This document shows, in pieces, positions 4,665 through 16,082 of a stretch of 21,617 nt of DNA; the stretch's first letter is position 1, and every line of letters begins with the position of its first letter. This DNA is from Tannerellaceae bacterium (GTDB taxonomy: Bacteria; Bacteroidota; Bacteroidia; Bacteroidales; Tannerellaceae). The notes beneath the pieces were generated by a model. That model did not search any database. It was not told where the DNA came from and worked only from the letters and a program-made list of their open reading frames with translations. The position numbers were made by a program, and so were the translations under genes. The stretch is taken from assembly GCA_031279915.1 (NCBI GenBank), contig JAITHO010000146.1, positions 1 through 21,617 on the forward strand, read 5' to 3'.

Positions 4665-4796
4665 GCAAGAATCTGCGTACTTATGTAGATAAATCTCCAT
4701 AGTTAGGCAAATAAATCTACGTACTTACGCAAATAAATGTGGATACTTACGCGAAAAAATGCAACAGCTTACTTGCATTTATGTGCGTAAGCTGTT
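4665..4796 (-). repeat. 22-base tandem repeat array C with hairpin head
   Basis: Six consecutive 22-base units (plus-strand blocks start at 4665, 4687, 4709, 4731, 4753 and 4775). Read on the minus strand, the units after the head fit GCGTAAGTA, five variable bases, then ATTTATTT; the two most regular are 4731-4752 and 4709-4730. The last unit (4665-4686) is degenerate. The first unit and a half form a perfect 10-base inverted repeat, AACAGCTTAC against GTAAGCTGTT, at 4763-4796. The array reads toward the M23 promoter, ending 81 bases from its -33 box. No ORF or CRISPR spacer pattern is present. Confidence 0.8.
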
Positions 4797-5002
4797 AGAT
4801 GAATTTTATGTGCTTTGTGGAGAGGGCGGCGAGCGTTGCCGCATGTTTTCGGGTACAAATGTACAAATTGTATTTTATCGGTGAAAAAATATTGCTCAAA
4901 ATTGTGGGGAAAATCTTGATATGTTGGCTGCCTATGCTGGCTGCTGCTTTGGCTTGCCGCGCTTCGGTATTAAGATTTTTGCCGACGGGTATGCATGCGT
5001 AG
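4797..5002. other. Rest of the M23/alaS spacer, no supported gene
   Basis: Between array C and the alaS promoter there is a 67-codon open frame (4799-5002, plus strand), but it has no promoter, no family resemblance and begins right at the repeat. I see no terminator, riboswitch or T-box-like element ahead of alaS. Confidence 0.4.
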
Positions 5003-5033
5003 TTTGAAAAGCGGCGAATTTGCCCTACTTTTG
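5003..5033 (+). promoter_or_regulatory. Consensus promoter for alaS-aroB
   Basis: TTTG (5003-5006), 19 bases, TACTTTTG (5026-5033). Transcription should begin near 5040, leaving an AT-rich leader of about 58 bases before the ATG at 5098. Confidence 0.8.
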
Positions 5034-5097
5034 CGAACCTTTTTTTGTGTTTTATCTATCGAAAAAAATAAATTACTTATACATTATATATTTATAT

Positions 5098-7722
5098 ATG
5101 TTGACATCAAAAGAACTACGCGTGTCGTTTACTGATTTCTTCGCTTCGAAGAATCATCAAATAGTGGCTTCGGCGCCGATGGTAATAAAGGGAGATCCGA
5201 CTCTTATGTTTACTAACGCGGGCATGAACCAGTTTAAGGATATTATACTTGGTAACGTACCGGCAAAGTACATTAGGGTGGCAGATTCGCAAAAATGCTT
5301 GCGAGTTAGCGGGAAACATAATGACCTGGAAGAGGTAGGCCATGACACGTATCATCACACTATGTTCGAGATGCTTGGGAACTGGTCGTTTGGTGATTAT
5401 TTCAAGAGTGAGGCGATTGCTTGGGCATGGGAGTACCTGACAACGAGGCTGCATCTGGATCCGGATAGGCTGTATGCCACCGTTTTCGAAGGAAGCGTGC
5501 TTGATTGTTTAGGACAAGACGCCGAGGCGGCCGAATACTGGGCGAGGCATCTCCCCCAAAGCCGTATTCTGAACGGATGTAAGAAGGATAATTTTTGGGA
5601 GATGGGCGACACCGGACCCTGCGGCCCTTGCTCCGAAATTCACATCGACTTGCGGCCTGATGACGAACGAGCATCCGTAAGCGGAGCCGAACTTGTTAAC
5701 AAAGATCACCCACAAGTCATTGAAATATGGAACCTTGTATTCATGCAATTCAACCGAAAGGCCGACGGATCGCTCGAACCGCTTCCGGCACGAGGTATCG
5801 ACACTGGCATGGGATTCGAACGACTTTGCATGGCAATTCAGGGTAAGACTTCAAATTATGATACCGATATTTTCCAACCAATCATACAACGCATCGCAGC
5901 CCTCACCGGCATAGCCTACGGAGACGACGACAAAGCCGACATCGCCATGCGAGTAGTTGCCGACCATATTCGCACCATCGCCTTCTCAATCACCGACGGC
6001 CAGCTCCCATCCAACGCAAAAGCCGGATACGTAATACGGCGAATACTGCGAAGAGCCGTTCGATACGCATACACATTCCTCAACATACGCGAGGCATTCA
6101 TGTACCGACTGCTCCCAGCGCTCATCGAATCAATGGGCAGCGCTTATCCGGAGCTCGACGAACAAAAATCTCTAATTGCCCGCGTAATCAAAGAAGAAGA
6201 AGAAGCATTCCTTCGAACCCTTGACACCGGCATACGACTGCTCGACAAAAAAACCGAAGAAGCCATCGCAGCCGGCCTAACAAGTTTGTCGGGGAAAGAC
6301 GCCTTTGCGCTCTACGACAGTTACGGCTTTCCGCTCGATCTCACCGAACTCATCCTGCGCGAACGCGGCATAGCCGTCGACATCAACTCATTCAACATCG
6401 AAATGCAGAAGCAAAAGGAGCGAGCCCGCAATGCCGCCGCAGTAGAAACAGGCGACTGGCTTGTCGTACGCGAAGGAGAAAGCCGCTTCGTAGGCTACGA
6501 CTGCTTGGAATCAGACGCCGAAATACTACGCTACCGAAAAGTAAAACAGAAGAACAAAGAATTTTATCAGATAGTACTCGACCAAACCCCCTTTTACGCA
6601 GAAAAAGGAGGACAGGTTGGAGATTCAGGGCAACTCGTCGCAGCAAACGACACCATAGCCATCGTCGATACCAAAAGCGAGAACAACCTGGCCGTGCATC
6701 TCGTTGAAAAACTACCTGCCGACATTGCCGCAACCTTCACAGCCCGCGTTGACATCGCCAAGCGACTGCAGTGCGAATGCAATCACAGCGGAACCCATCT
6801 GCTTCACCAAGCCCTGCGCGAAGTGCTCGGAACGCACGTAGAGCAGCGCGGATCATACGTCGCACCCGAATCCCTACGCTTCGACTTCTCTCACTTTCAG
6901 AAGCTAACAGAAGCCGAACTACGAGAAGTAGAACGACGCGTAGGCGAGAAAATCCGCGCCGATTACCCATTAGACGAACATCGATCCATACCCATCGCAC
7001 AAGCAAAAGCAATGGGAGCAATAGCCCTATTCGGCGAAAAATACGGCGACGACGTACGCGTAATTCGTTACGGAAGCTCCGTAGAACTTTGCGGCGGTAC
7101 GCACATTCCCTCCACAGGACGTATCGGAAGCCTGCGGATAATAGCCGAAAGCTCCATAGCAGCAGGCGTGAGGCGCATCGAAGCCGTAACCGCCGAAGGA
7201 GCCGAAAGCTATTACTTTCAGCTACAAGATACCTTGCGAGAAATCAGAAACCTAACCAACAACATGCCCGACCTTATCCAAACAATCAAGAAAAACATCA
7301 ACGAAAATGCCGAACTACGTCGACAAATCGACGCCTACGATAAGGAAAAAATTACCAGTATAAAGCACACAATTCTCGCAAACATCATCAGCCGCAACGG
7401 CCTCCGCATCGCACAATACATAGGCCCAGGCAGCCCCGAACTCATCAAAGACGTCGCATTCCAAATCAAAAGCGAGCTCAAAAACGCATTCATCTTCGTA
7501 GCCGGAATCGAACAAGCCGCCAAGCCCACCCTCATGCTTATGCTCAGCGACGAGCTCGTAAGCGCAGGAAAAGATGCCGCCCGCCTGATAAAATCAGCCG
7601 CCGCACTCATACAAGGCGGAGGAGGAGGGCAGCCGCACTTCGCAACAGCAGGCGGAAAAAATCCCACCCGACTCAAAGAAGCCGTCGAAAGCATCCTCAA
7701 AGAACTCAAGCTCGAAGGATAA
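5098..7722 (+). CDS. alaS: Alanine--tRNA ligase
   Basis: Class II synthetase that charges tRNA-Ala and edits mischarged Ser/Gly; 874 residues, normal length. The catalytic domain shows TNAGMNQF (39-46), [14 protein letters not shown] (89-102), [12 protein letters not shown] (170-181) and motif 3 GMGFER (237-242). The editing domain has both halves of the zinc site: HSGTH (H563, H567) and CGGTH (C665, H669), so editing should be intact. The C-Ala domain ends with the glycine-rich [15 protein letters not shown] (839-853). The frame is open from 5020, but the promoter's -7 box lies at 5026-5033 and MLTSKELR at 5098 is the normal family start. Base use changes inside the gene: before about 5650 the plus strand is G/T-richer, afterwards C/A-richer. 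The next gene, aroB, starts 38 bases on with no terminator between, so the two are probably cotranscribed. Confidence 0.98.
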
Positions 7723-7760
7723 AAACACCAAAACATTCAGGAAAAAAAATCAATACTATT

Positions 7761-8819
7761 ATGAAAACCACCATCACCGCAAGCATCCAAAAAGACCTCG
7801 GCGCATACCTATCCACCACAACATTCGACCAAATATTCATCCTTGCAGACAGCAACACCCGCCAGCATTGTTTGCCCCTCGTGATAAATGTTCCACAAAT
7901 AGCCGAAGCCAAACTCATAACCATAGACGCAGGCGATCTCAACAAATCACTCACGCAGCTAAGCAATATTTGGACAATACTCTCAAACCAACGCGCCACG
8001 CGCCACACATTGCTCATTAACCTCGGAGGCGGAATGGTCAGCGACATCGGAGGATTTGCAGCCGCTACCTTCAAGCGCGGCCTTCGAACCCTAAACATTC
8101 CTACCACACTTATGGCCGCCGTCGACGCCGCTATCGGAGGAAAAACAGGCATAAACTTCAATGGATTGAAAAACGAAGTCGGAGCCTTTCACACGCCCAT
8201 CGCCGTCTTTATCAGCAGCTTGTTCCTCCGCACCCTCGACCGAGGCAACATCCTCTCAGGATATGCCGAAATGATCAAACACGCTCTGTTAGAAGGATCT
8301 GACACCCTTGCCGACACACTCTCCTTCGAGCCCGATGCAGATTTGCACGATTACGCAAGGCTCAATCGCATGATGGCCGAATCAATAAGCGTAAAGGAAA
8401 AAATAGTTGCAGCCGACCCCCTGGAAAAATCCGCACGCAAAGCCCTAAATCTGGGACATACCATCGGACACGCCCTCGAAAGCATCTCGTTTGCCGATCA
8501 ACGCCCATTGCTGCACGGCTGCGCAGTAGCCCACGGATTAGTATGCGAGCTTTACATTTCCTACAAAAACTGCGGCTTCCCCAGCTCCACACTTATGAAC
8601 GTAGCCCGCTTCATAAAGTCGCATTACCCTCCATACCCCATCGACTGCAGCCGCTACGATGCTCTGTATGAGCTGATGACGCACGACAAAAAAAACCAAA
8701 GCAATGCCCCATCCTTCGCCCTACTTGCCCAAGTAGGCCAGCCAAAGATCGACCAAACCGTTGAACGCGCACTCGTCGAAGAATCCCTCGATTTTTATCA
8801 GGATTTCTTTGGAATCTAA
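7761..8819 (+). CDS. aroB: 3-dehydroquinate synthase
   Basis: Cytoplasmic second enzyme of the shikimate pathway, converting DAHP to 3-dehydroquinate with NAD+ and a divalent metal. The 352 residues are a normal length. The NAD-binding signature GGGMVSDIGGFAAATFKRG is at 89-107, followed by PTTLMAAVDAAIGGKTGIN (114-132) and the lysine-bearing GYAEMIKHAL (167-176). Metal ligands are visible as E170, H233 in GHTIGHALE (232-240) and H252 in LHGCAVAHG (251-259). All active-site groups look intact. It follows alaS by 38 bases, an association that probably reflects cotranscription and not shared function. The tRNA-Pro promoter begins inside its last codons, so the aroB transcript may run on through the tRNA to its terminator. 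Confidence 0.97.
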   Translation: MKTTITASIQKDLGAYLSTTTFDQIFILADSNTRQHCLPLVINVPQIAEAKLITIDAGDLNKSLTQLSNIWTILSNQRATRHTLLINLGGGMVSDIGGFAAATFKRGLRTLNIPTTLMAAVDAAIGGKTGINFNGLKNEVGAFHTPIAVFISSLFLRTLDRGNILSGYAEMIKHALLEGSDTLADTLSFEPDADLHDYARLNRMMAESISVKEKIVAADPLEKSARKALNLGHTIGHALESISFADQRPLLHGCAVAHGLVCELYISYKNCGFPSSTLMNVARFIKSHYPPYPIDCSRYDALYELMTHDKKNQSNAPSFALLAQVGQPKIDQTVERALVEESLDFYQDFFGI

Positions 8820-8838
8820 AATCAATCACGTATATTTG
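8808..8838 (+). promoter_or_regulatory. Consensus promoter for tRNA-Pro, overlapping the end of aroB
   Basis: TTTG (8808-8811) inside the last aroB codons, 19 bases, TATATTTG (8831-8838). Transcription would begin only a few bases before the tRNA 5' end at 8850. Confidence 0.8.
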
Positions 8839-8849
8839 TCGCCCCAAAG

Positions 8850-8924
8850 CGGGGTGTAGCTCAGCCAGGTTAGAGTACGCGTCTGGGGGGCGTGTGGTCG
8901 CTAGTTCGAATCTAGTCACCCCGA
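8850..8924 (+). tRNA. tRNA-Pro (anticodon GGG)
   Basis: A 75-base cloverleaf. The acceptor stem CGGGGTG (8850-8856) pairs fully with CACCCCG (8917-8923), with discriminator A8924. The D arm is GCTC/GAGT, closing with a G-U pair. The anticodon stem CGCGT/GCGTG carries the loop CTGGGGG, giving anticodon GGG after T33 and G at position 37, both expected for proline. The T arm GCTAG, loop TTCGAAT, CTAGT is canonical. The CCA end is not encoded. It reads the CCC and CCU codons. It has its own promoter and terminator, so it is a single-tRNA unit. Confidence 0.95.
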
Positions 8925-8933
8925 CTTTGAAAA

Positions 8934-8972
8934 AAGAAGGTCAGGTTTGTAGCCGGGCCTTCTTCTGTTTTT
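8934..8972 (+). terminator. Intrinsic terminator of tRNA-Pro (and possibly alaS-aroB)
   Basis: AAGAAGGTC (8934-8942) pairs with GGCCTTCTT (8956-8964) through nine pairs including one G-U, followed three bases later by five T. Confidence 0.8.
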
Positions 8973-9008
8973 AGACCCCCTCAAGCCCCTTGTCACATAT
9001 TTATAATA

Positions 9009-9030
9009 TATATGTACGCGCGTACATATA
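9009..9030. repeat. Perfect 22-base palindrome
   Basis: TATATGTACGC followed directly by its exact complement, no central gap. It lies 85 bases past tRNA-Pro and about 90 bases before the next promoter-like sequence. It could be an operator for a dimeric protein, a cruciform or a recombination site; no neighbour indicates which. Confidence 0.6.
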
Positions 9031-9120
9031 ATAAGGCTATCGAAATCTGTACCCTTACCCGTGCATTTCTCAGTCGTTATGAAAATAAATTTGCCGTATT
9101 AAGAATTTTTAGCTAAAAAC

Positions 9121-9152
9121 TTGTGAGGATATATTTTTATTCGTTATCTTTG
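9121..9152 (+). promoter_or_regulatory. Probable promoter upstream of repeat array A
   Basis: TTG (9121-9123), 21 bases, TATCTTTG (9145-9152). The -7 box is a full match; spacing is slightly long. It would make a transcript covering the small open frame at 9185, array A and possibly the HU gene, 350 bases downstream. Confidence 0.5.
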
Positions 9153-9184
9153 CGGCATAAACAATCATTTAAAGTTTTTCACCA

Positions 9185-9436
9185 ATGCAGGCTAAAATTT
9201 CCAAATATATTGAATCAAATATTCGCAAAGCGATCAGCATCTCTATCGCAAGGCATGCAGAACTTTGCGGCAACTTATGCGCATTTATTCGACAACTTAC
9301 GCGCATTTATTTGGCTACTTATGTAGATTTGTTTGGCAACTTACGGAGATTTCCCTATCAAGCTATCGGGATATTTATGACAAACTATTCAGCTTTTTTT
9401 TATAAATCATGCAATCGTTTTTGTGACAGCAAATAA
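9185..9436 (+). CDS. Possible small protein (83 residues) running through repeat array A
   Basis: An ATG lies 32 bases after the -7 box at 9145-9152 and opens an 83-codon frame ending in TAA at 9436. I recognise no family. Residues 1-28 (MQAKISKYIESNIRKAISIS and so on) look like an amphipathic helix with ordinary codon use. From about residue 28 the frame crosses the four 22-base repeat units, which, not being a multiple of three, are read in changing frames. The tail has many Phe/Tyr and Cys residues, untypical of a folded domain. It could be a real small protein, the stub of a gene interrupted by the repeat, or chance. The promoter is the only positive evidence. Confidence 0.2.
   Translation: MQAKISKYIESNIRKAISISIARHAELCGNLCAFIRQLTRIYLATYVDLFGNLRRFPYQAIGIFMTNYSAFFYKSCNRFCDSK
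9224..9269 (+). repeat. Nested inverted repeats just ahead of array A
   Basis: An outer pair CGCAAAG (9224-9230) and CTTTGCG (9263-9269) encloses GCGAT (9230-9234) and ATCGC (9245-9249). The right outer arm ends on the first base of array A, the place where arrays B and C carry their hairpin heads. The sequence is unrelated to those heads. Confidence 0.4.
9269..9356 (+). repeat. 22-base tandem repeat array A
   Basis: Four units of exactly 22 bases start at 9269, 9291, 9313 and 9335. Each reads GGCAACTTA (units 2 and 3 differ by one base), five variable bases (TGCGC, CGCGC, TGTAG, CGGAG), then ATTTATTT or a variant. The last tail is ATTTCCCT. The register matches arrays B and C. It reads toward the HU-like gene, ending 146 bases before its ATG. 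Confidence 0.8.
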
Positions 9437-9502
9437 TATTTGTTTTTGAGAACTGTATTTTTTATGTATTAATTAAGTATTAACATTTACACCTTTTGAA
9501 TC

Positions 9503-10279
9503 ATGAAGTTCAAGCTAGACAAAAAGATCAATCCAAGTGCACCCAATGAGCCGGCCAAATGGCATGCAGCTCCAGTGTATGCGGAGAAAGTGACAACAGA
9601 AGAAGTTGCGAATGAAATTTCAGAACGTTCAACAATAAGCTCGGCCGATACCGAGGGCATACTTGAATCGTTTTCGAAAATTCTACCAGAACACTTGGCC
9701 AAAGGCGAGCCAGTGTATTTGCGCGGCGTCGGAACATTTCGCCTCGGAATTAGCAGCGAAGGCGTTGAAAATCCGAACGATTTCAACGTTTCACTTATCA
9801 GGTCGAAGAAAATTATTTACACGCCTGATGTGAAAATCCAAAACCTGCTTAATCAGTATATTCACTATGAAGACAGCGGACAGCGCGGCACTACCTCAAC
9901 AAATATCTCATGGCTGACAGACTTGCTTTCAGGCACGTCGAATGAGAAGATAACCTATGGCGGTTCCGTGCGACTATCAGGGCAAAAACTGAAGCTCAAG
10001 GGGTCAGATAATACCGTAGGCTTAAAGCTATTGCGAGTAGCAACGCAGCAAGATATAGCAATTCCGATGTCGGCAATACCCGTGAACAAGGCCAAAGAAA
10101 TCGTATTCGTTGTGCCCATGGATTTGCCAGCCGGACTGTATCAAATTCGCATCGTTACACAATATAACGGCAGCTTGGCCCGCGAAGCTAAGGCACCGCA
10201 TGTGTATACATACGAGCCTAAACTTGAAGTAGTTCAGCCAGAGCCCGACGATCATAATCCACCGTCGGCAGGCGAATAA
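9503..10279 (+). CDS. HU-family DNA-binding protein with C-terminal Ig-like domain (Bacteroidetes HU-HIG type)
   Basis: Predicted nucleoid-type protein of 258 residues. Residues about 1-122 form an HU/IHF-like domain: VTTEEVANEISERSTISSADTEG (30-52, given here as the two opening helices) and the HU-type segment EPVYLRGVGTFRLGISSEGV (69-88), then YTPDVKIQNLLNQ (106-118). Residues about 145-240 match the Ig-like domain (DUF4469 type) often attached in this phylum, with KITYGGSVRLSGQKLKLKG and ending MDLPAGLYQIRIVTQYNGS. Many Bacteroidales carry several such genes; DNA targets are unknown. The tail is acidic and Pro-rich (EPKLEVVQPEPDDHNPPSAGE). It stands alone, with terminators before and after. 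No good promoter lies directly in front; the nearest -7 box is at 9145-9152, before array A, so the repeats may be in its 5' leader. Confidence 0.85.
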   Translation: MKFKLDKKINPSAPNEPAKWHAAPVYAEKVTTEEVANEISERSTISSADTEGILESFSKILPEHLAKGEPVYLRGVGTFRLGISSEGVENPNDFNVSLIRSKKIIYTPDVKIQNLLNQYIHYEDSGQRGTTSTNISWLTDLLSGTSNEKITYGGSVRLSGQKLKLKGSDNTVGLKLLRVATQQDIAIPMSAIPVNKAKEIVFVVPMDLPAGLYQIRIVTQYNGSLAREAKAPHVYTYEPKLEVVQPEPDDHNPPSAGE

Positions 10280-10294
10280 TATTAACTTAAAACT

Positions 10295-10324
10295 GGGGGC
10301 TGCAAACGTAGCCCCCTTTCTTTT
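10295..10324 (+). terminator. Intrinsic terminator of the HU-like gene
   Basis: GGGGGCT (10295-10301) pairs perfectly with AGCCCCC (10310-10316), loop of eight bases, followed by TTTCTTTT. Confidence 0.9.
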
Positions 10325-10392
10325 GCACTGCAGGAGAAAAAAAATCGTAGCCCTATACATTATATATATGTATGCAGTCGGAAACTTTGAAG

Positions 10393-10400
10393 TATATTTG
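10393..10400 (+). promoter_or_regulatory. -7 box for the rpoN operon
   Basis: TATATTTG, 31 bases before the rpoN ATG. The -33 position has only a partial match (TATG at 18 bases). Confidence 0.6.
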
Positions 10401-10431
10401 CGCATAAATCTTCTAAAATCACGCAGATAAG

Positions 10432-11886
10432 ATGCTTAAGCAACAGTTGCAACAAAAGCTACAGCAAAAACTTTCTCCACACCAGATCCAATTAATTAAA
10501 CTATTGGAGGTGCCTTCCATTGAGCTTGAGGAGAGAATTAAGCAAGAATTGCAGGAAAATCCAGCGCTTGAGGAGGGCGATGAAACTCCACAAGTTGACG
10601 AAAATCCGGCAACCAATGACGAACAAGACGCGGATGAAGCTGCAGATGAGCGCGACGATGATATTGCGCTTGGCGACTACCTTACGGAAGACGATATACC
10701 AGATTACAAACTCCGTGAGATCAGCGAACGCATGGAAAAGCGCGAAGAGATTCCCTTCGCCGGCAGTCAGACGATGTATGAATTTTTGCACAGACAGCTC
10801 GGATTGCGCACAATGTCGGAGCGCGAAATGCAAATAGCCGAATACATTATCGGCAACTTAGATAGCGACGGATACCTTCGCCGCAATGTCGACGCGATAG
10901 CCGACGATCTTATATTTCAAACCAATAGCGAAGTTCATGAGCACGAGATCGAAGCCATTATCCGCATAGTTCAGGATATGGATCCTCCAGGGATCGGCGC
11001 TCGCAACCTGCGCGAGTGCTTGCTTTTGCAGCTTGAGCGAAAAGAACATACGCCCGCATCCGAGGATGCTTACAAAATTTTGAGCGATTTTTTCGAAGAC
11101 TTTTCGCATAAACGTTACGACAAGATCATGAAACTCTGCGACATCGACGAAGACGCCCTGAAAGCAGCCGTAGCCGAAATTACCGCCCTTGATCCCAAGC
11201 CCGGCGGCCTTTGGGACGAAAGCATGGAAACGGCCATGCGCATAACTCCCGACTTTATTGTCGAATCTCACAACGGCGAGCTGGTTTTGAGCATGAATAG
11301 CCGAGAAATACCCCCGCTCCGAGTCAGTCGCGAGTACATCGGTATGCTTGAGCAGTACGATAAGCATGGGTCGGCGCCTTCCGACCTTCGCGACGCCGCG
11401 CTATTTGTTAAGCAAAAAATTGAGTCAGCGCGCTGGTTTATCGACGCCGTACGTCAGCGCCAAGAAACCCTCCGCAGGACGATGAGCGCGATAATGGAGT
11501 TCCAAAAAAAATTCTTCATTACCGGCGACGAGTCAATGCTAAGGCCAATGATTCTGAAAGATATATCGGCTAGCGCCGGATATGATAAATCAACGATTTC
11601 GCGCGTCAGCAACAGCAAGTACGTACAGACGAATTTTGGCATCTATCCGCTGAAATATTTTTTTTCAGACTATCTGCAAACAACAGAAGGCGAGGAGGTG
11701 ACAACTCGCGAAGTAAAGAAAATTTTATTGGAATGCATTGAGAATGAAGACAAGCGCCATCCCTACAACGATGAGGAACTTGCGGCATATATGCAGGAGC
11801 GCGGTTTCGTAATTGCTCGACGCACTATTGCAAAATACCGTGAGCAGCTTGACGTTCCTGTTGCACGACTGCGGAAAGAAATTTAA
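10432..11886 (+). CDS. rpoN: RNA polymerase sigma-54 factor
   Basis: Alternative sigma factor that recognises -24/-12 promoters and needs AAA+ activators to open them; 484 residues. Region I is the Gln/Leu-rich start (LKQQLQQKLQQKLSPHQIQL, then LLEVPSIELEERIKQELQENPAL to residue 46, shown in two parts). Region II is strongly acidic (about 48-85). The core-binding region follows, with the helix-turn-helix near 375-396 (ISASAGYDKSTISRVSNSKY) and the RpoN box ARRTIAKYRE at 462-471, essentially the universal signature. All parts needed for function are present. No sigma-54 activator gene lies in the window and I found no -24/-12 promoter in its spacers, so targets are elsewhere. It leads a plus-strand operon; the next gene starts 26 bases on. 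Confidence 0.97.
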   Translation: MLKQQLQQKLQQKLSPHQIQLIKLLEVPSIELEERIKQELQENPALEEGDETPQVDENPATNDEQDADEAADERDDDIALGDYLTEDDIPDYKLREISERMEKREEIPFAGSQTMYEFLHRQLGLRTMSEREMQIAEYIIGNLDSDGYLRRNVDAIADDLIFQTNSEVHEHEIEAIIRIVQDMDPPGIGARNLRECLLLQLERKEHTPASEDAYKILSDFFEDFSHKRYDKIMKLCDIDEDALKAAVAEITALDPKPGGLWDESMETAMRITPDFIVESHNGELVLSMNSREIPPLRVSREYIGMLEQYDKHGSAPSDLRDAALFVKQKIESARWFIDAVRQRQETLRRTMSAIMEFQKKFFITGDESMLRPMILKDISASAGYDKSTISRVSNSKYVQTNFGIYPLKYFFSDYLQTTEGEEVTTREVKKILLECIENEDKRHPYNDEELAAYMQERGFVIARRTIAKYREQLDVPVARLRKEI

Positions 11887-11912
11887 ATTTGTAGGCAAAA
11901 GGAATATACACG

Positions 11913-12524
11913 ATGAAGAACTTTGCCAATTTGGTTTCTATAATTTGTCACCCTCTGCTTATGATGACTTACGGCGTATTGCTTGCGCTGTCTTACACGT
12001 ATTTGGCCTTGTTTCCGCTTCCGGCTAAAATATATATGGTAGTGGCTGTTTTAGTTTTTACAGCAGTATTGCCAAGTATTGTGGTAGTAATGCTAGTTCG
12101 TAGCGGAGGAGCAGGAGATTTAGAGCTAAGCCGTAAGGGCGAACGTGTTATTCCTTATTTATCGTTTATGGCAGGCAATATCGCCTGCTTTTTCTTTTAT
12201 TCCAAGCTAGGGATGCCGCCTTGGTTTCTGTCGATGTTCACGGGAGTAAGCATAGCCTTGTTATTTGCGCTTTGTATCAACTTCGTTTGGAAAATAAGTG
12301 CGCATGCGATGGGGATAGGCGGTTTGCTGGGCGCAATAATGGGTGCGTCTTATGTGCAGATGATCAATCCATATAGGCTGTTTATTGGGGTAATATTGTT
12401 GGCCGGCTTGACGTGTATGTCGAGAATAATTTTGGGCAAGCATACGCTGATGCAGCTTCTGTGCGGGTTTTTGCTTGGATTTGCGAGTACGTTTATCACA
12501 TTAGTATTAAATATTTCTTATTAA
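11913..12524 (+). CDS. PAP2-like integral membrane protein with degenerate active site
   Basis: Hydrophobic protein of 203 residues with about six membrane segments. The arrangement resembles the phosphatidic acid phosphatase type 2 superfamily: RKGERVIP (74-81) stands where KX6RP is expected, SAH (129-131) where PSGH is expected, and SR with H177 after five residues (170-177) matches SRX5H. The Asp that should follow three residues after that His is Gln181, and the first motif is altered, so normal lipid-phosphate hydrolysis is doubtful; it could be a divergent enzyme or a non-catalytic relative. It lies 26 bases after rpoN and 29 before gcvH, evidently in the same operon, but no functional link is obvious. 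Family placement is moderate; function unknown. Confidence 0.7.
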   Translation: MKNFANLVSIICHPLLMMTYGVLLALSYTYLALFPLPAKIYMVVAVLVFTAVLPSIVVVMLVRSGGAGDLELSRKGERVIPYLSFMAGNIACFFFYSKLGMPPWFLSMFTGVSIALLFALCINFVWKISAHAMGIGGLLGAIMGASYVQMINPYRLFIGVILLAGLTCMSRIILGKHTLMQLLCGFLLGFASTFITLVLNISY

Positions 12525-12553
12525 TTTATTCCCAAAAAACTTATCAAACGATT

Positions 12554-12928
12554 ATGAAATTTCCAGATAACTTGAAGTATACTAAGGATCACGAATGGAT
12601 CCGAGTGGAGGCAAACGAGGCGTATGTTGGTATCACTGATTACGCCCAGAGCGAATTAGGCGAGATCGTTTTTGTGGAAATAACCACAGAAGGCGAAACT
12701 CTTGAACGCGAAGACACGTTCGGCACTATCGAAGCCGTTAAAACAGTGTCTGATCTTTTCATGCCCGTTGGCGGCAGAGTTATTTCCGCCAATAAGGCGC
12801 TGGAAAGCAATCCGGAGCTGATTAATGCCGATGCCTACGGAGATGGCTGGATCGTAAAGATCGAAATATCTAATCCGGCAGAGCTAAATGATTTAATGAC
12901 CGCTGCCGAATATCAGGCCATGCTATGA
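12554..12928 (+). CDS. gcvH: Glycine cleavage system H protein
   Basis: Lipoyl carrier of the glycine cleavage complex: it accepts the aminomethyl group from the P protein, passes it to the T protein, and is reoxidised by the L protein. The 124 residues are a normal length. HEWIRVE (13-19) and VGITDYAQSELGEIVFVE (25-42) start the domain, and GTIEAVKTVSDL (57-68) carries the lipoylated Lys63. NPELINADAYGDGWIVKI (86-103) completes the family pattern. The frame is open upstream, but MKFPDNLKYTKDHEW at 12554 is the normal start. It overlaps purE by four bases (ATGA), so translation is probably coupled. The P, T and L genes are not in the window. Both gcvH and purE belong to one-carbon/purine metabolism, a plausible reason for the pairing. 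Confidence 0.97.
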   Translation: MKFPDNLKYTKDHEWIRVEANEAYVGITDYAQSELGEIVFVEITTEGETLEREDTFGTIEAVKTVSDLFMPVGGRVISANKALESNPELINADAYGDGWIVKIEISNPAELNDLMTAAEYQAML

Positions 12929-13446
12929 CGACGCCTCTGTCACCTGTTGTAAGCATTATTATGGGAAGCGCGTCAGATCTTTCGGTTATGGAGAAAGCTG
13001 CCGCGTTTCTTGATGAAATGGAGATTCCATTTGAGATGCAAGCCCTCTCCGCCCACCGTACTCCGGAGGCGGTTGAGCTTTTCGCCAAGGGCGCTAAAGG
13101 TCGTGGAATCAAGGTCATAATAGCTGCGGCGGGGATGTCAGCGCATTTGGCTGGAGTTGTTGCCGCGATGACAACTTTGCCCGTGCTTGGCGTGCCTATT
13201 GATGCATCGTCGCTGAGCGGGGTCGACGCCTTGCTCTCGATTGTGCAGATGCCTCCCGGAATCCCTGTCGGAACGCTGGGAATCAACGCTTCGCTCAATG
13301 CTGCAATACTTTCTGCACAGATACTTGCAACCTCTGATAAGGATCTGGAGAAAAAGATAGAAGCGTATAAGGAAAATCTCAAGCGGAAGATAGTGAAGGC
13401 TAATAGCGAGTTGTCGGACGTTCGCTATAAGTACAAAACCAACTAA
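12925..13446 (+). CDS. purE: 5-(carboxyamino)imidazole ribonucleotide mutase, class I PurE
   Basis: Converts N5-CAIR to CAIR in de novo purine synthesis, after PurK makes N5-CAIR; cytoplasmic, octameric in known members. The 173 residues show GSASD (14-18), SAHR (42-45), AAAGMSAHLAG (67-77, with Met-Ser where Ala-Ala is usual) and GVDALLSIVQMPPGIPV (99-115). The SAHR His and the first Ser/Asp pair, the catalytic and substrate groups, are present. The pattern is that of class I (mutase), not the animal-type class II. purK is not nearby. The ATG overlaps the gcvH stop, and ispG follows after six bases. Confidence 0.96.
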   Translation: MTTPLSPVVSIIMGSASDLSVMEKAAAFLDEMEIPFEMQALSAHRTPEAVELFAKGAKGRGIKVIIAAAGMSAHLAGVVAAMTTLPVLGVPIDASSLSGVDALLSIVQMPPGIPVGTLGINASLNAAILSAQILATSDKDLEKKIEAYKENLKRKIVKANSELSDVRYKYKTN

Positions 13447-13452
13447 GCCCTG

Positions 13453-15057
13453 GTGCAGCTTTTCAATTATAAGCGTCGGCAATCCTCCGTTGTATTTATC
13501 GGCCAAACTCCCCTCGGAGGCGACCATCCCATTCGCATACAGTCGATGGCAAACGTATCGACTATGAACACTGACGCCGCCCTTGCCCAAGCCTTGCAGA
13601 TGGCTGAGGCAGGGGCGGACTACATTCGTTTCACGGCCCAGGGCGAACGCGAGGCGAAAAATCTGGGGCTCATCCGAAAAAAAATGCACGAGCTCGGATG
13701 CATGGTTCCTATCGTTGCCGATATACATTTCAACGCTAAGGCTGCAATTGCGGCTGCGGGCGCGGTTGATAAAGTACGCATTAACCCAGGAAATTTCGCC
13801 CCGTCGGAACAGCTCTTGCGCAGTAGATTTGTAAATTTCCTTAGAGTTTGCAAAGCGCATAAGGCCGCTGTCAGAATAGGCGTGAACCATGGTTCGCTTT
13901 CAGATCGAATAATGCGAGAGTATGGCGACACCGCCGAAGGAATGGTCGCCTCCTGCATGGAATTTCTCGAAATATGCCGCTCAGAACGATTCGACAACGT
14001 TGTCGTATCCCTCAAAGCTTCGAACACGATGCTGATGATCAAGGCTGTACGATTGCTTGCAGCCCGCATGGATGAAAACGGCATGCATTTCCCGATCCAT
14101 CTCGGAGTAACCGAAGCGGGCGACGCAGAAGATGGCAGAATAAAGAGCGCACTTGGCATCGGAGCTCTGCTGGCCGACGGAATTGGCGATACCATACGGG
14201 TCTCACTTAGCGAAGCCCCTGAGAACGAACTGCCCGTTACCTTTAAACTTTCCGATTACATATCTTGCCGAAAAAACCACGAGCTTATACACGCAAATCT
14301 CGCACCTGGATACAATCATCTCGCAATGGAACGGCGACAGAGCCGCCCCACAGGGCATATAGGCGGCGGACAAGCGCCAGTGATTCTGCCAATTGATGGC
14401 ACGGGCAACGCTCAACTTATGCCGATAACTGCGACAGATTTGTTGACAGATGGCTTCATACCTTCGCTATCAGATAAGCCTGAGGCGGTAATTTTGTTAT
14501 CATCCGTGCACAAAAATCCGGTAGGCGAGATGCGGGCGGCCATGCATAAGCTCGTGAGCGAAAATTGCAAAGTTCCGGTAATATTTCGATTCGATTATCA
14601 GGAAAATGATGCCGAGACGCTAATAGTTAAGGCAGCAGCCGACGCCGGAGCTCTCCTTGCCGACGGATTTGTTGACGGCCTGATGCTTACAAACTTCGGA
14701 CAGCCCATAGACACAGCCGGCAGCCTGCCCTTCAGAATCCTCCAAGCAGCGCGCCTACGCATCTCACACACAGAATATATCGCCTGCCCAGGATGCGGAC
14801 GAACGCTCTACGATTTGCAAGCAAGCCTCGCAAGAGTGAAAGCCGCCACCGCTGACTTTGTCGGACTTAAAATCGCCGTTATGGGATGTATTGTAAACGG
14901 CCCGGGCGAAATGGCCGACGCTGATTACGGATACGTTGGCGCCGGACGCGGGCGCGTCAGCCTCTATAAGGGAAAAGATTGCATGGCAAAGAACGTTCCT
15001 GAAGACCAGGCAGTTGAATTACTTCTGCAACTTATTCGCAGTGATGTCCGCACCTAG
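13453..15057 (+). CDS. ispG: 4-hydroxy-3-methylbut-2-enyl diphosphate synthase (flavodoxin/ferredoxin), long form
   Basis: Next-to-last MEP-pathway enzyme; reduces MEcPP to HMBPP with a [4Fe-4S] cluster, for isoprenoid (quinone, undecaprenyl) synthesis. The TIM-barrel part opens with GGDHPIRIQSMAN and shows ADIHFN and KVRINPGN. The C-terminal part holds the cluster ligands C445 and C448 (ACPGCGRTL) and C479 (GCIVNGPGE). At 534 residues it exceeds the E. coli enzyme (about 370), because of the central insert seen in Bacteroidetes, Chlamydia and plants; it seems a little shorter than other Bacteroidales versions I recall. The start chosen is GTG at 13453, six bases after purE; no in-frame ATG is near enough to replace it. 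Its end overlaps the next gene by 14 bases. Confidence 0.95.
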   Translation: MQLFNYKRRQSSVVFIGQTPLGGDHPIRIQSMANVSTMNTDAALAQALQMAEAGADYIRFTAQGEREAKNLGLIRKKMHELGCMVPIVADIHFNAKAAIAAAGAVDKVRINPGNFAPSEQLLRSRFVNFLRVCKAHKAAVRIGVNHGSLSDRIMREYGDTAEGMVASCMEFLEICRSERFDNVVVSLKASNTMLMIKAVRLLAARMDENGMHFPIHLGVTEAGDAEDGRIKSALGIGALLADGIGDTIRVSLSEAPENELPVTFKLSDYISCRKNHELIHANLAPGYNHLAMERRQSRPTGHIGGGQAPVILPIDGTGNAQLMPITATDLLTDGFIPSLSDKPEAVILLSSVHKNPVGEMRAAMHKLVSENCKVPVIFRFDYQENDAETLIVKAAADAGALLADGFVDGLMLTNFGQPIDTAGSLPFRILQAARLRISHTEYIACPGCGRTLYDLQASLARVKAATADFVGLKIAVMGCIVNGPGEMADADYGYVGAGRGRVSLYKGKDCMAKNVPEDQAVELLLQLIRSDVRT

Positions 15058-15871
15058 CGTCGAACTCATAGAAACAGGCCGATTTTATGCCGACGGCGGC
15101 GCCATGTTCGGCTGCATACCGAAGGCCTCATGGACGCGTCGATACCCATGCAAAGCCGACAACGCATGCGTGTTGGCAATGCGCTCAATGTTGATTAACG
15201 ACGGCAACGGGCGCATAATTCTCGTAGATAATGGTGTAGGAAACAAGCAATTGCGCAAACTCCGATCCTACAACTTTTTCGATCTTGTCGACATAAATAG
15301 CGAACTGCAACGCCGCGGTATTGCGCCAACCGACGTGACCGATGTCGTCCTCACGCATCTACATTTCGACCATTGCGGCTATACTACGCAGCGCGACGAC
15401 GATGGCCGCCTGAAGCTTAGCTTCCCACATGCGCGACATTGGATAACACGCTCACAGTGGGATATTTGCAACAATCCCAGCCCCCTCGAACAAAGTTCGT
15501 ATCTGAAGGAGAACATAGAGCCGCTTGCCGATGCCACGGGGCTCCGCCTTATCGACAGCCCTGTTGACATAAGTCCCGCAGTCGCTCTAAAAATAGCTGG
15601 AGGCCATGCCGACGGACAGATCGTAGTATACGCTACTGATGCGGATCGTACGTACGTTTTTGCCGGCGACGTTATCCCGCTTGCCGCACACATTTCTCTC
15701 GCCTGGATATCAGCTTACGACCTTTTTCCTCTGAACTCATACAACGCAAAGCGCCTCATTTTGGACGAGGCCGCCCGCCTGCATCAAAGCCTGGTTTACT
15801 GCCATGACGCATATCTCCCCTGCTCTACGATCAAAAAACTGCGCAAAGACGTATATTCCATTCTTAAATAA
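15044..15871 (+). CDS. MBL-fold (metallo-beta-lactamase superfamily) metal-dependent hydrolase
   Basis: Predicted soluble hydrolase of 275 residues with a two-metal site. The hallmark HLHFDH is at 105-110, with further likely ligands H188 (GGHADG), D209 (FAGDV) and H254 (YCHDAY), so both metal sites look complete. The layout, with a long N-terminal strand region and VDNGVG before the HxHxDH motif, resembles the lactonase/quorum-quenching-like branch more than glyoxalase II or RNase Z, but the substrate cannot be told. No signal peptide. ATG at 15044 overlaps the end of ispG by 14 bases; a longer open frame from 14936 lies inside ispG and is unlikely. It is the last gene of the rpoN operon and is followed at once by a strong terminator. 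Confidence 0.88.
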   Translation: MSAPSVELIETGRFYADGGAMFGCIPKASWTRRYPCKADNACVLAMRSMLINDGNGRIILVDNGVGNKQLRKLRSYNFFDLVDINSELQRRGIAPTDVTDVVLTHLHFDHCGYTTQRDDDGRLKLSFPHARHWITRSQWDICNNPSPLEQSSYLKENIEPLADATGLRLIDSPVDISPAVALKIAGGHADGQIVVYATDADRTYVFAGDVIPLAAHISLAWISAYDLFPLNSYNAKRLILDEAARLHQSLVYCHDAYLPCSTIKKLRKDVYSILK

Positions 15872-15874
15872 TAC

Positions 15875-15906
15875 AAAATAGCCTCTCAATATGGGGCTAT
15901 TTTTTT
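15875..15906 (+). terminator. Intrinsic terminator of the rpoN-MBL operon
   Basis: AAAATAGCC (15875-15883) pairs perfectly with GGCTATTTT (15895-15903), followed by more T. It lies three bases after the MBL stop codon. Confidence 0.9.
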
Positions 15907-15994
15907 GCTTCTTTAAAATAGGTTTTGTAAATTTGCTGCCGAATTCATGTAGCAAGCTTAATCATTTCATAAACCAGCTCAGTTGAATTATTTC

Positions 15995-16082
15995 GGCAAC
16001 TTACTCGCATTTTTGCGCATAAGTTGCCGAATTTATTTGCGTAACTATCTAAGTTTATTTGCCTAAGTAGCCAAATTTCCGT
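15995..16082 (+). repeat. 22-base tandem repeat array B with hairpin head
   Basis: Four 22-base units start at 15995, 16017, 16039 and 16061. The first unit and a half form a hairpin: GGCAACTTA (15995-16003) with TAAGTTGCC (16020-16028), plus an inner stem CGCA/TGCG closing a TTTT loop. The following units read GCGTAACTA and GCCTAAGTA, five variable bases, then TTTATTT-like tails; the final tail is ATTTCCGT. It reads toward feoAB, ending 237 bases before its ATG. Confidence 0.8.

What the first reader, a model, noticed from the sequence alone, without database searches (positions are those of the whole stretch)
4665..16082. Dispersed family of 22-base-period arrays in three intergenic spaces
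Arrays at 4665-4796 (minus), 9269-9356 (plus) and 15995-16082 (plus) have exact 22-base periods and, once oriented, share one register: a 9-base arm (GGCAACTTA or GCGTAAGTA), five highly variable bases, and a tail near ATTTATTT. Period and tail are kept while the middle varies, which suggests selection or homogenisation of some positions only. They have no CRISPR-like spacers and no neighbouring transposase. I recall a Porphyromonas gingivalis MITE family (BrickBuilt) built from about 23-base tandem repeats; these could be relatives or an independent equivalent, which cannot be judged here.
Basis: partly seen in the sequence, partly recalled or inferred. Interest (0 to 1): 0.75.

Follow-up and report, generated by a model that had tools for sequence, protein, structure and literature searches.

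The report
22-base arrays tied to HU-like genes
Short 22-base palindromic repeats scattered between genes in an uncultured Bacteroidales bacterium match the repeats sitting beside genes for histone-like DNA-binding proteins, suggesting that each such protein has its own repeated landing site, a pairing also seen in related bacteria.

Summary
The three arrays are real: exact 22-bp period (0 of 5000 shuffles each), and nine more in the same draft genome. The unit is a 16-bp imperfect dyad plus a 6-bp ATTTAT-like spacer. They are not BrickBuilt (22 not 23 bp; none of its terminal repeats nearby).

Array B lies upstream of the window's HU-HIG/DUF4469 gene (9503-10279). Both full-length HU-HIG genes found in this genome have an array upstream. 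Over Bacteroidales, 43 of 81 HU-HIG upstream regions examined hold a 22-bp array, against 0 of 20 ordinary-HU genes and 6 of 835 genes from loci not chosen for arrays. Words differ by gene; 30 of 34 dispersed arrays best match an HU-HIG gene of their own genome (2.4 expected), by narrow margins here. Sister genome G017 keeps arrays at 7 of 8 testable orthologous places with rewritten cores.

Best explanation: HU-HIG dimers bind these dyads as phased operator arrays, regulating themselves and other loci. The association is shown; binding and regulation are inferred. My paper searches found no description.

The parts
4665..4796 (-). Array A: six 22-bp units (two mutually inverted at its start, then four GCGTAAGTA-type), between the divergent M23 peptidase and alaS genes
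   Evidence: no array in the orthologous space of the 16 other genus genomes examined
9262..9356 (+). Array B: four clear GGCAACTTA-type units, upstream of the HU-HIG/DUF4469 gene
   Evidence: orthologous G017 array with core CTGCCATGCTTGGCAG
9503..10279 (+). HU-HIG/DUF4469 (TIGR01201 HU_rel) gene, 258 aa: proposed DNA-binding partner of the arrays
   Evidence: PF18291 1.4e-22, PF14734 1.6e-20; TIGR01201 80.7 bits, cut-off 68.6; relative of solved 4fmr
15988..16082 (+). Array C: four units, the first two mutually inverted, between a metallo-beta-lactamase-fold gene and feoB, same direction
   Evidence: orthologous G017 array with rewritten cores

Best explanation
The arrays are tandem operator sites (iterons) for HU-HIG proteins, HU-related DNA-binding proteins (TIGR01201/PF18291). 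A homodimer would bind each 16-bp dyad; the 22-bp pitch, two helical turns, would put successive dimers on one face of the DNA so that they pack side by side over the array. Beside its own gene the array would be an autoregulatory operator; dispersed arrays (A, C and others here) would be further targets where the protein covers DNA upstream of unrelated genes. Each HU-HIG paralog has its own half-site word, and words drift with the protein, so lattice and position persist while cores are rewritten between species. SHOWN: the lattice; genome-specific half-sites alike in both arms (four of five genomes); association of 22-bp arrays with HU-HIG genes; match of dispersed arrays to an HU-HIG gene's array in the same genome. 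INFERRED: binding, cooperativity, autoregulation, effect on neighbouring genes.
For: (1) In the 400 bp upstream of HU-HIG genes the best lag of 15-30 is 22 (>=0.60 over 66 bp) in 26 of 47 genus regions, another lag in 3 of 47; in 8 more, 22 in 4 and another in 0; in 26 usable regions of other Bacteroidales genera, 22 in 13 and another in 1 (one N-masked region and one gene without upstream DNA dropped there, one gene without upstream DNA dropped). Total 43 of 81. Controls: short HU genes 0 of 20; genes in 80 Bacteroidota loci 6 of 835, or 6 of 380 with >=150 bp free upstream. Fisher 4e-6, 1e-44, 2e-31; other genera alone against the 380, 2e-13. (2) Both full-length HU-HIG genes found in G000 (C35, C46) have an array upstream; so do all three in G017, two of them orthologous with a rewritten word and the third with another word. 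(3) 30 of 34 dispersed arrays score best on an HU-HIG upstream region of their own genome among 50 regions, 2.4 expected: G002 8 of 8, G007 3 of 3, G011 5 of 6, G017 5 of 6, G000 9 of 10, G010 0 of 1; the G002, G007 and five G011 hits score 15.8-23.1 against at most 11.6 elsewhere. (4) Left-half and reverse-complemented right-half profiles agree within a genome (r 0.94, 0.90, 0.91, 0.99; G014 0.45) and less between genomes (-0.18 to 0.58). (5) 30 of 32 distances between exact ATTTAT/ATAAAT in the 12 arrays are 0 mod 22 (control outside arrays 0 of 8), although cores within a G000 array are only 46% identical. (6) Mismatched symmetric pairs are G-T 149, A-C 159: no sign of an RNA strand. (7) HU-HIG protein identity correlates with word similarity over 43 genes, Mantel r 0.50, p 0.0002. 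(8) Mean dyad strength of those 43 words is 0.702 against 0.561 shuffled, best of 200 shuffle sets 0.590.
Against: No binding or expression data. 38 of 81 HU-HIG upstream regions show no 22-bp array by this measure; G000's own C46 array scores 0.57, below the threshold, and G011 L131 passes at 0.61 on a doubtful stretch, its clear array lying about 400 bp up. In G000 the word match is weak: own best 9.9-13.3, other genomes 8.8-11.7. G017 L156 has no match, L120 next to none (7.7 against 7.5), G010 none; G014 has arrays and no full-length HU-HIG in its 66%-complete assembly. In 21 genus loci, most fetched because they hold arrays or are syntenic with the window, 12 of 119 genes also have a lag-22 upstream. 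DUF4469 genes outside the 81 mostly have the array downstream with period 23, and only 11 of 31 such words are dyadic at p<=0.05. The Mantel result also follows from linked inheritance. DUF4469 occurs in genomes without the ATTTAT lattice, e.g. G001 and G009. Arms match within units beyond within-array permutation in G000, G011 and G014 (p 0.002, 0.013, 0.010), a hint of unit-level symmetry; in an earlier unit set of G000 it was p 0.027 and vanished without the GCGGCAGTACTGCCGC class (p 0.85). The array threshold was set after the first cases were seen.
Confidence: 0.62

Rival explanations
1. A selfish palindromic minisatellite or MITE-like element: arrays spread, lengthen by slippage and are homogenised by conversion; HU-HIG genes are only a frequent home, perhaps because the element arose from their upstream DNA.
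For: In G002 nine loci carry the lattice and, by eye, eight share flanks on at least one side. Within-array homogeneity in G017 (0.75 within, 0.42 between) and G011 (0.63, 0.47). Array A gained in this lineage.
Against: Arrays at 7 of 8 orthologous places in G017 with rewritten cores; exact phasing over diverged cores; no transposase among 18 window ORFs; the HU-HIG association holds in other Bacteroidales genera with different words. Target duplications were not looked for systematically.
Confidence: 0.22
2. Transcribed hairpin arrays acting as RNA (attenuator, stabiliser).
For: Folded as single-stranded DNA, A and C (z -3.1, -5.4), G017 L158 (-6.4) and G011 L130 (-3.2) beat shuffles; G002 elements end in a T-run.
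Against: Array B folds no better than shuffles (z -0.32). G-T and A-C mismatches are equally common overall, and by array only L137 of G014 is biased at p<=0.05, towards A-C; orientation was set by the spacer, not by transcription, so the test is limited. Only an ordinary tRNA matches Rfam at its cut-offs.
Confidence: 0.06
3. Crossover lattice for a tyrosine recombinase: 8-bp arms flanking a 6-bp AT-rich overlap, giving inversions and unit exchange.
For: Spacer is the most constant element over five genomes (pooled information 0.8-1.5 bits against 0.1-0.7 in the core, though units were picked by spacer); inverted units in A and C.
Against: No recombinase among 18 window ORFs scanned; the ATTTAT spacer is not shared by HU-HIG arrays in general (words).
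Confidence: 0.04
4. REP/RAYT elements.
For: Short dispersed palindromes between genes; G007 and G014, which have arrays, do carry Y1 transposase genes.
Against: Y1 transposase (PF01797) not found in G000, G017, G011, G002 and G005, the genomes with the clearest lattice excess, all drafts; tandem 22-bp pitch.
Confidence: 0.02

Closest known systems
BrickBuilt MITE/minisatellite of Porphyromonas gingivalis (PMC4596501)
   Same: Dispersed, intergenic, imperfect tandem units of about two helical turns, partly conserved positions, predicted stem-loops
   Different: 23-nt unit, leader/tail with IS5-type TIRs, reported from P. gingivalis only; no HU link in the parts I saw
HU_rel / HU-HIG proteins (TIGR01201, PF18291; solved member 4fmr, BVU_2165)
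   Same: The window gene 9503-10279 is a member
   Different: I found no cognate DNA site named for them; here a paralog-specific array is proposed
Operator or centromere arrays such as ParR-parC, MetJ and ArgR boxes (recalled, from no call)
   Same: Tandem sites at helical pitch, own-gene regulation, cooperative binding
   Different: HU-fold partner; words rewritten between sister species and between paralogs
REP/RAYT and BIME repeats (recalled)
   Same: Dispersed intergenic palindromes
   Different: No RAYT found in the five clearest array-bearing genomes; strict 22-bp tandem pitch

Membership tests
BrickBuilt | 23-nt tandem unit | tested here: not met
   22 bp in A, B and C
BrickBuilt | Terminal inverted repeats GAGACC.../...GGTCTC | tested here: not met
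   none of four exact TIR words within 400 bp of A, B, C
BrickBuilt | Shared leader and tail | not tested
   G000 flanks look unrelated by eye; not aligned formally
BrickBuilt | P. gingivalis host | tested here: not met
   closest named relative is a Tannerellaceae MAG, Pc512_bin25
HU_rel/HU-HIG (the gene) | Score over NCBIfam and Pfam cut-offs | tested here: met
HU_rel/HU-HIG (the gene) | Related to a solved member | tested here: met
   4fmr by profile 3.6e-17 and Foldseek 1.1e-14, TM 0.42-0.47; model pLDDT 71, domain packing uncertain
Autoregulated operator array | Array beside the binder's own gene | tested here: met
   43 of 81 against 0 of 20 and 6 of 835
Autoregulated operator array | Same word at remote targets | tested here: met
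   30 of 34; narrow margins in G000
Autoregulated operator array | Protein binds the array | not testable with these tools
   needs biochemistry
REP/RAYT | Y1 transposase gene | tested here: not met
   none in G000 (60.75% complete), G017, G011, G002, G005; present in G007 and G014
CRISPR | Constant repeats with unique spacers | tested here: not met
   contiguous 22-bp units; the most constant part is 6 bp
Minisatellite | Copy number varies among strains | not testable with these tools
   no second strain at hand; unit numbers differ between G000 and G017 orthologs

The most novel reading that the evidence does not exclude
HU-HIG proteins are a large, unrecognised class of sequence-specific HU relatives, each with its own 22-23-bp palindromic array; protein and dispersed target arrays co-evolve fast enough that sister species keep the sites but rewrite the words, a bacterial chromatin code with paralog-specific addresses.
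Probability: 0.42. Interest if true: 0.9.

Novelty: new variant of a known kind. Interest (0 to 1): 0.77.

Why it matters
HU_rel/HU-HIG proteins are numerous in some Bacteroidales (up to 18 PF18291 matches per genus genome, short HU included), and I found no DNA site assigned to them. If each has a readable cognate array beside its gene, their targets can be predicted from sequence alone, and a fast-evolving protein-site pair in bacteria can be studied by comparing sister species.

Tried and rejected
Hairpin kept by compensatory change within units: weak at best, and G-T equals A-C. RAYT/REP. ATTTAT lattice elsewhere in the order: of 295 genomes G000 is the clearest (14 hits, control 0); the others have at most 7, a few with 4-6 over 0-1 in the control (e.g. 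G278, G221, G204, G073), which I did not examine. So I saw no comparable excess outside the genus, but cannot exclude small families; the 22-bp HU-HIG arrays are not genus-bound. Plasmid collection: only the tRNA stretch matches. DUF4469 as the obligate partner: rejected, it is missing from G007, G010 and G014, which have arrays, and present in G001 and G009 without the lattice. Promoter motif TAnnTTTG between array and HU domain in 7 of 43 (1.6 expected), so promoter overlap is not established. Orthologous arrays share no more core identity than non-orthologous ones (0.42 against 0.41, p 0.20). Tandem arrays of 21-23 bp near M23 genes in other Bacteroidota were listed and not pursued.

Papers: ten searches. 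DUF4469: 0 papers. TIGR01201/PF18291/HU-HIG/PF14734: 5 papers hold at least one term; judged from the listing, none is about these repeats. PMC4596501: opening part, passages and one section seen. PMC5771137: passages. All others: listings only. The library holds open-licence papers only. A 2017 comparative study of new HU/IHF clades (recalled; its title words turn up in papers listed) is not in the listing and was not read; it may treat the HIG family.
Full report
OBSERVATION. Arrays A (4796->4665, minus), B (9269-9356) and C (15995-16082) are as described. Lag-22 self-identity is 0.61, 0.76 and 0.59, and 0 of 5000 shuffles reach it for any array. The window is contig C35 of a 2.085-Mb draft genome, 60.75% complete, with core genes (SDF symporter, mscS, alaS, aroB, HU-HIG, rpoN, gcvH, purE, gcpE, a FeoA-FeoB fusion, rubrerythrin, prs). 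The nearest relative seen, G017, is Tannerellaceae bacterium Pc512_bin25 (its contig length equals JAITGS010000070.1).

MORE COPIES. A two-unit sequence model gives 36 matches at E<=1 in this genome, in or beside 12 arrays including A, B and C. Of 11 with a gene on both sides, 5 lie between divergent genes, 6 between genes of one direction and 0 between convergent genes; the twelfth is at a contig end (ORFs under 100 aa that overlap an array ignored).

ANATOMY. The unit is a 16-bp core with a dyad at its centre plus a 6-bp ATTTAT-like spacer. Over 210 units of five genomes the dyad stands out only at that centre (0.59 against 0.21-0.32). Phasing is strict: 30 of 32 distances between exact spacer words in the 12 arrays are multiples of 22, although cores inside a G000 array are only 46% identical. 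Within a genome the left half-site profile resembles the reverse complement of the right one (r 0.94, 0.90, 0.91, 0.99; 0.45 in G014), less so between genomes (-0.18 to 0.58). A left half pairs with its own right half at 4.64 of 8 positions and with another genome's at 2.45. Units were chosen by their spacer, so spacer conservation is inflated; the choice did not use the core. Mismatches are G-T 149, A-C 159, so nothing points to RNA, with the limit that orientation was set by the spacer.

EVOLUTION. Relatives in the genus have the lattice with other words: over 18 genus genomes, pattern hits exceed the reversed-pattern control clearly in G000 (28 to 1), G011 (31 to 10), G002 (17 to 1), G005 (18 to 2) and G017 (15 to 5), weakly in G014 (10 to 3); G007 has arrays but a higher control (19 to 29); the other 11 have 1-10 hits against 0-7. 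Arrays were read in G017, G002, G011, G007, G014 and G010; those of G005 were not read from that search. In G017, arrays sit at 7 of the 8 G000 loci whose two flanking genes are both conserved (B, C, C50, C62b, C172, C46, C202; not A), with different cores. Of the remaining four loci, C97, C62a and C21 showed no lattice beside the one or two conserved genes, and for C195 only a distant paralog was found. Core identity at orthologous places is no higher than elsewhere (0.42, 0.41, p 0.20). Array A has no counterpart in the 16 other genus genomes examined; G002's match was partial and was left out. In G002 nine loci carry the lattice and, by eye, eight share flanks on at least one side; three (L125, L249, L251), and L250 in part, have CCGTACGG where the others have CAGTACTG, a concerted change that keeps the palindrome.

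PARTNER. Array B stands before the window's HU-HIG/DUF4469 gene. A search for HU-HIG (PF18291) found just two full-length genes in this genome, C35:9506 and C46:2761, and both have an array upstream. That prompted a wider test. In 47 HU-HIG genes of the genus with enough upstream DNA the best repeat lag among 15-30 is 22 in 26, another lag in 3 and none in 18 (the C46 gene falls among the 'none' at 0.57). In 8 more it is 22 in 4. In 26 usable regions from other Bacteroidales genera it is 22 in 13, another in 1; and 6 of 28 loci there have a lag-22 array downstream. Those genera are few: 15 of 119 order genomes, G000 included, have HU-HIG at E<=1e-20. Total 43 of 81. Short HU genes: 0 of 20; genes of 80 Bacteroidota loci: 6 of 835. 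In 21 genus loci, mostly fetched for their arrays or synteny, 12 of 119 genes have it; this is no fair control but is told. A wider-flank count agrees: 26 of 44 HU-HIG loci without DUF4469 have a lag-22/23 array at >=0.62 against 1 of 20 short-HU loci and 3 of 39 assorted loci, one of them a known array. DUF4469 genes of the genus: 35 of 42 fetched, of 44 matches, have one, but 31 of these lie downstream, 25 with period 23, and only 11 of the 31 are dyadic at p<=0.05. Whether these are the same kind I do not know.

WORD MATCH. Profiles of 34 dispersed arrays (of 42 read; left out were five beside an HU-HIG gene, one with two units and two of G014, which has no region to match) were scanned on 50 HU-HIG upstream regions; the best region is of the same genome in 30, 2.4 expected. 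Margins are wide in G002, G007, five G011 arrays and four G017 arrays, narrow in G000. L286 and L131 of G011 were scanned with up to 700 bp upstream instead of 400; L286 was added after its word was recognised. Before that, with 55 regions, the five G011 arrays found no own-genome match. Four of six dispersed G017 arrays match one of its two HU-HIG/DUF4469 genes on C26 and C80. Protein identity and word similarity correlate over 43 genes (r 0.50, p 0.0002), which could also come from linked inheritance.

PROTEIN. 258 aa; TIGR01201 HU_rel over cut-off; PF18291 and PF14734; solved relative 4fmr, a putative DNA-binding protein. The model has mean pLDDT 71 and pTM 0.45, so only the domain match is used. 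16 homologs besides itself were found in the large protein database.

MECHANISM. I read the arrays as phased operator sites for HU-HIG homodimers: one dimer per 16-bp dyad, successive dimers on one face because the pitch is two helical turns, own-gene arrays for autoregulation and dispersed arrays for other loci. Drift in protein specificity would force words to change at all sites, which fits what G000 and G017 show. Binding, cooperativity and regulation are inference. Against it stand the 38 of 81 genes without an array, the weak word match in G000, the unmatched arrays of G017, G010 and G014, and the mobile look of the G002 element, which keeps the selfish-minisatellite rival alive.

KNOWN OR NEW. 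BrickBuilt membership fails on unit length and terminal repeats. Ten paper searches in an open-licence library showed nothing on 22-bp arrays at HU-HIG genes. The kind (DNA-binding protein with operator arrays) is known; the HU-fold partner, the paralog-specific words and their rewriting between sister species are the new variant.

CHECK. 

Noticed in passing
L283-L324 (42 DUF4469 loci, 10 genomes): 31 have a 22- or 23-bp tandem array 30-591 bp downstream of the DUF4469 domain, 25 of them with period 23, the BrickBuilt period.
   Followed up: partly
L375 (G000:C47) and L325 (G017:C56): An AATTCCTATAAGAATT-like 22-bp array in G000 resembles the word upstream of G017's third HU-HIG gene; no such gene was found in the incomplete G000 assembly.
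   Followed up: no
G000:C196:16227-16276: Possible thirteenth array with another palindrome (TTCCATGCGCATGGAA), seen only as a pattern hit.
   Followed up: no
L123-L127, L248-L251 (G002): Dispersed element of roughly 285 bp by eye: possible 5' hairpins, lattice units, T-run; concerted CAGTACTG/CCGTACGG change.
   Followed up: partly
L140 (G017:C26): Further near-perfect 21-bp and 23-bp repeats on the syntenic contig (lag scores 0.96 and 1.0).
   Followed up: no
L166, L179, L180, L212, L218, L222: 21-23-bp tandem arrays in other Bacteroidota loci, dyad p 0.02-0.25.
   Followed up: no
six of 12 G000 arrays (C50, C195, C46, C21, C97, C202): Each holds one near-perfect GCGGCAGTACTGCCGC unit in register among degenerate units.
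   Followed up: partly
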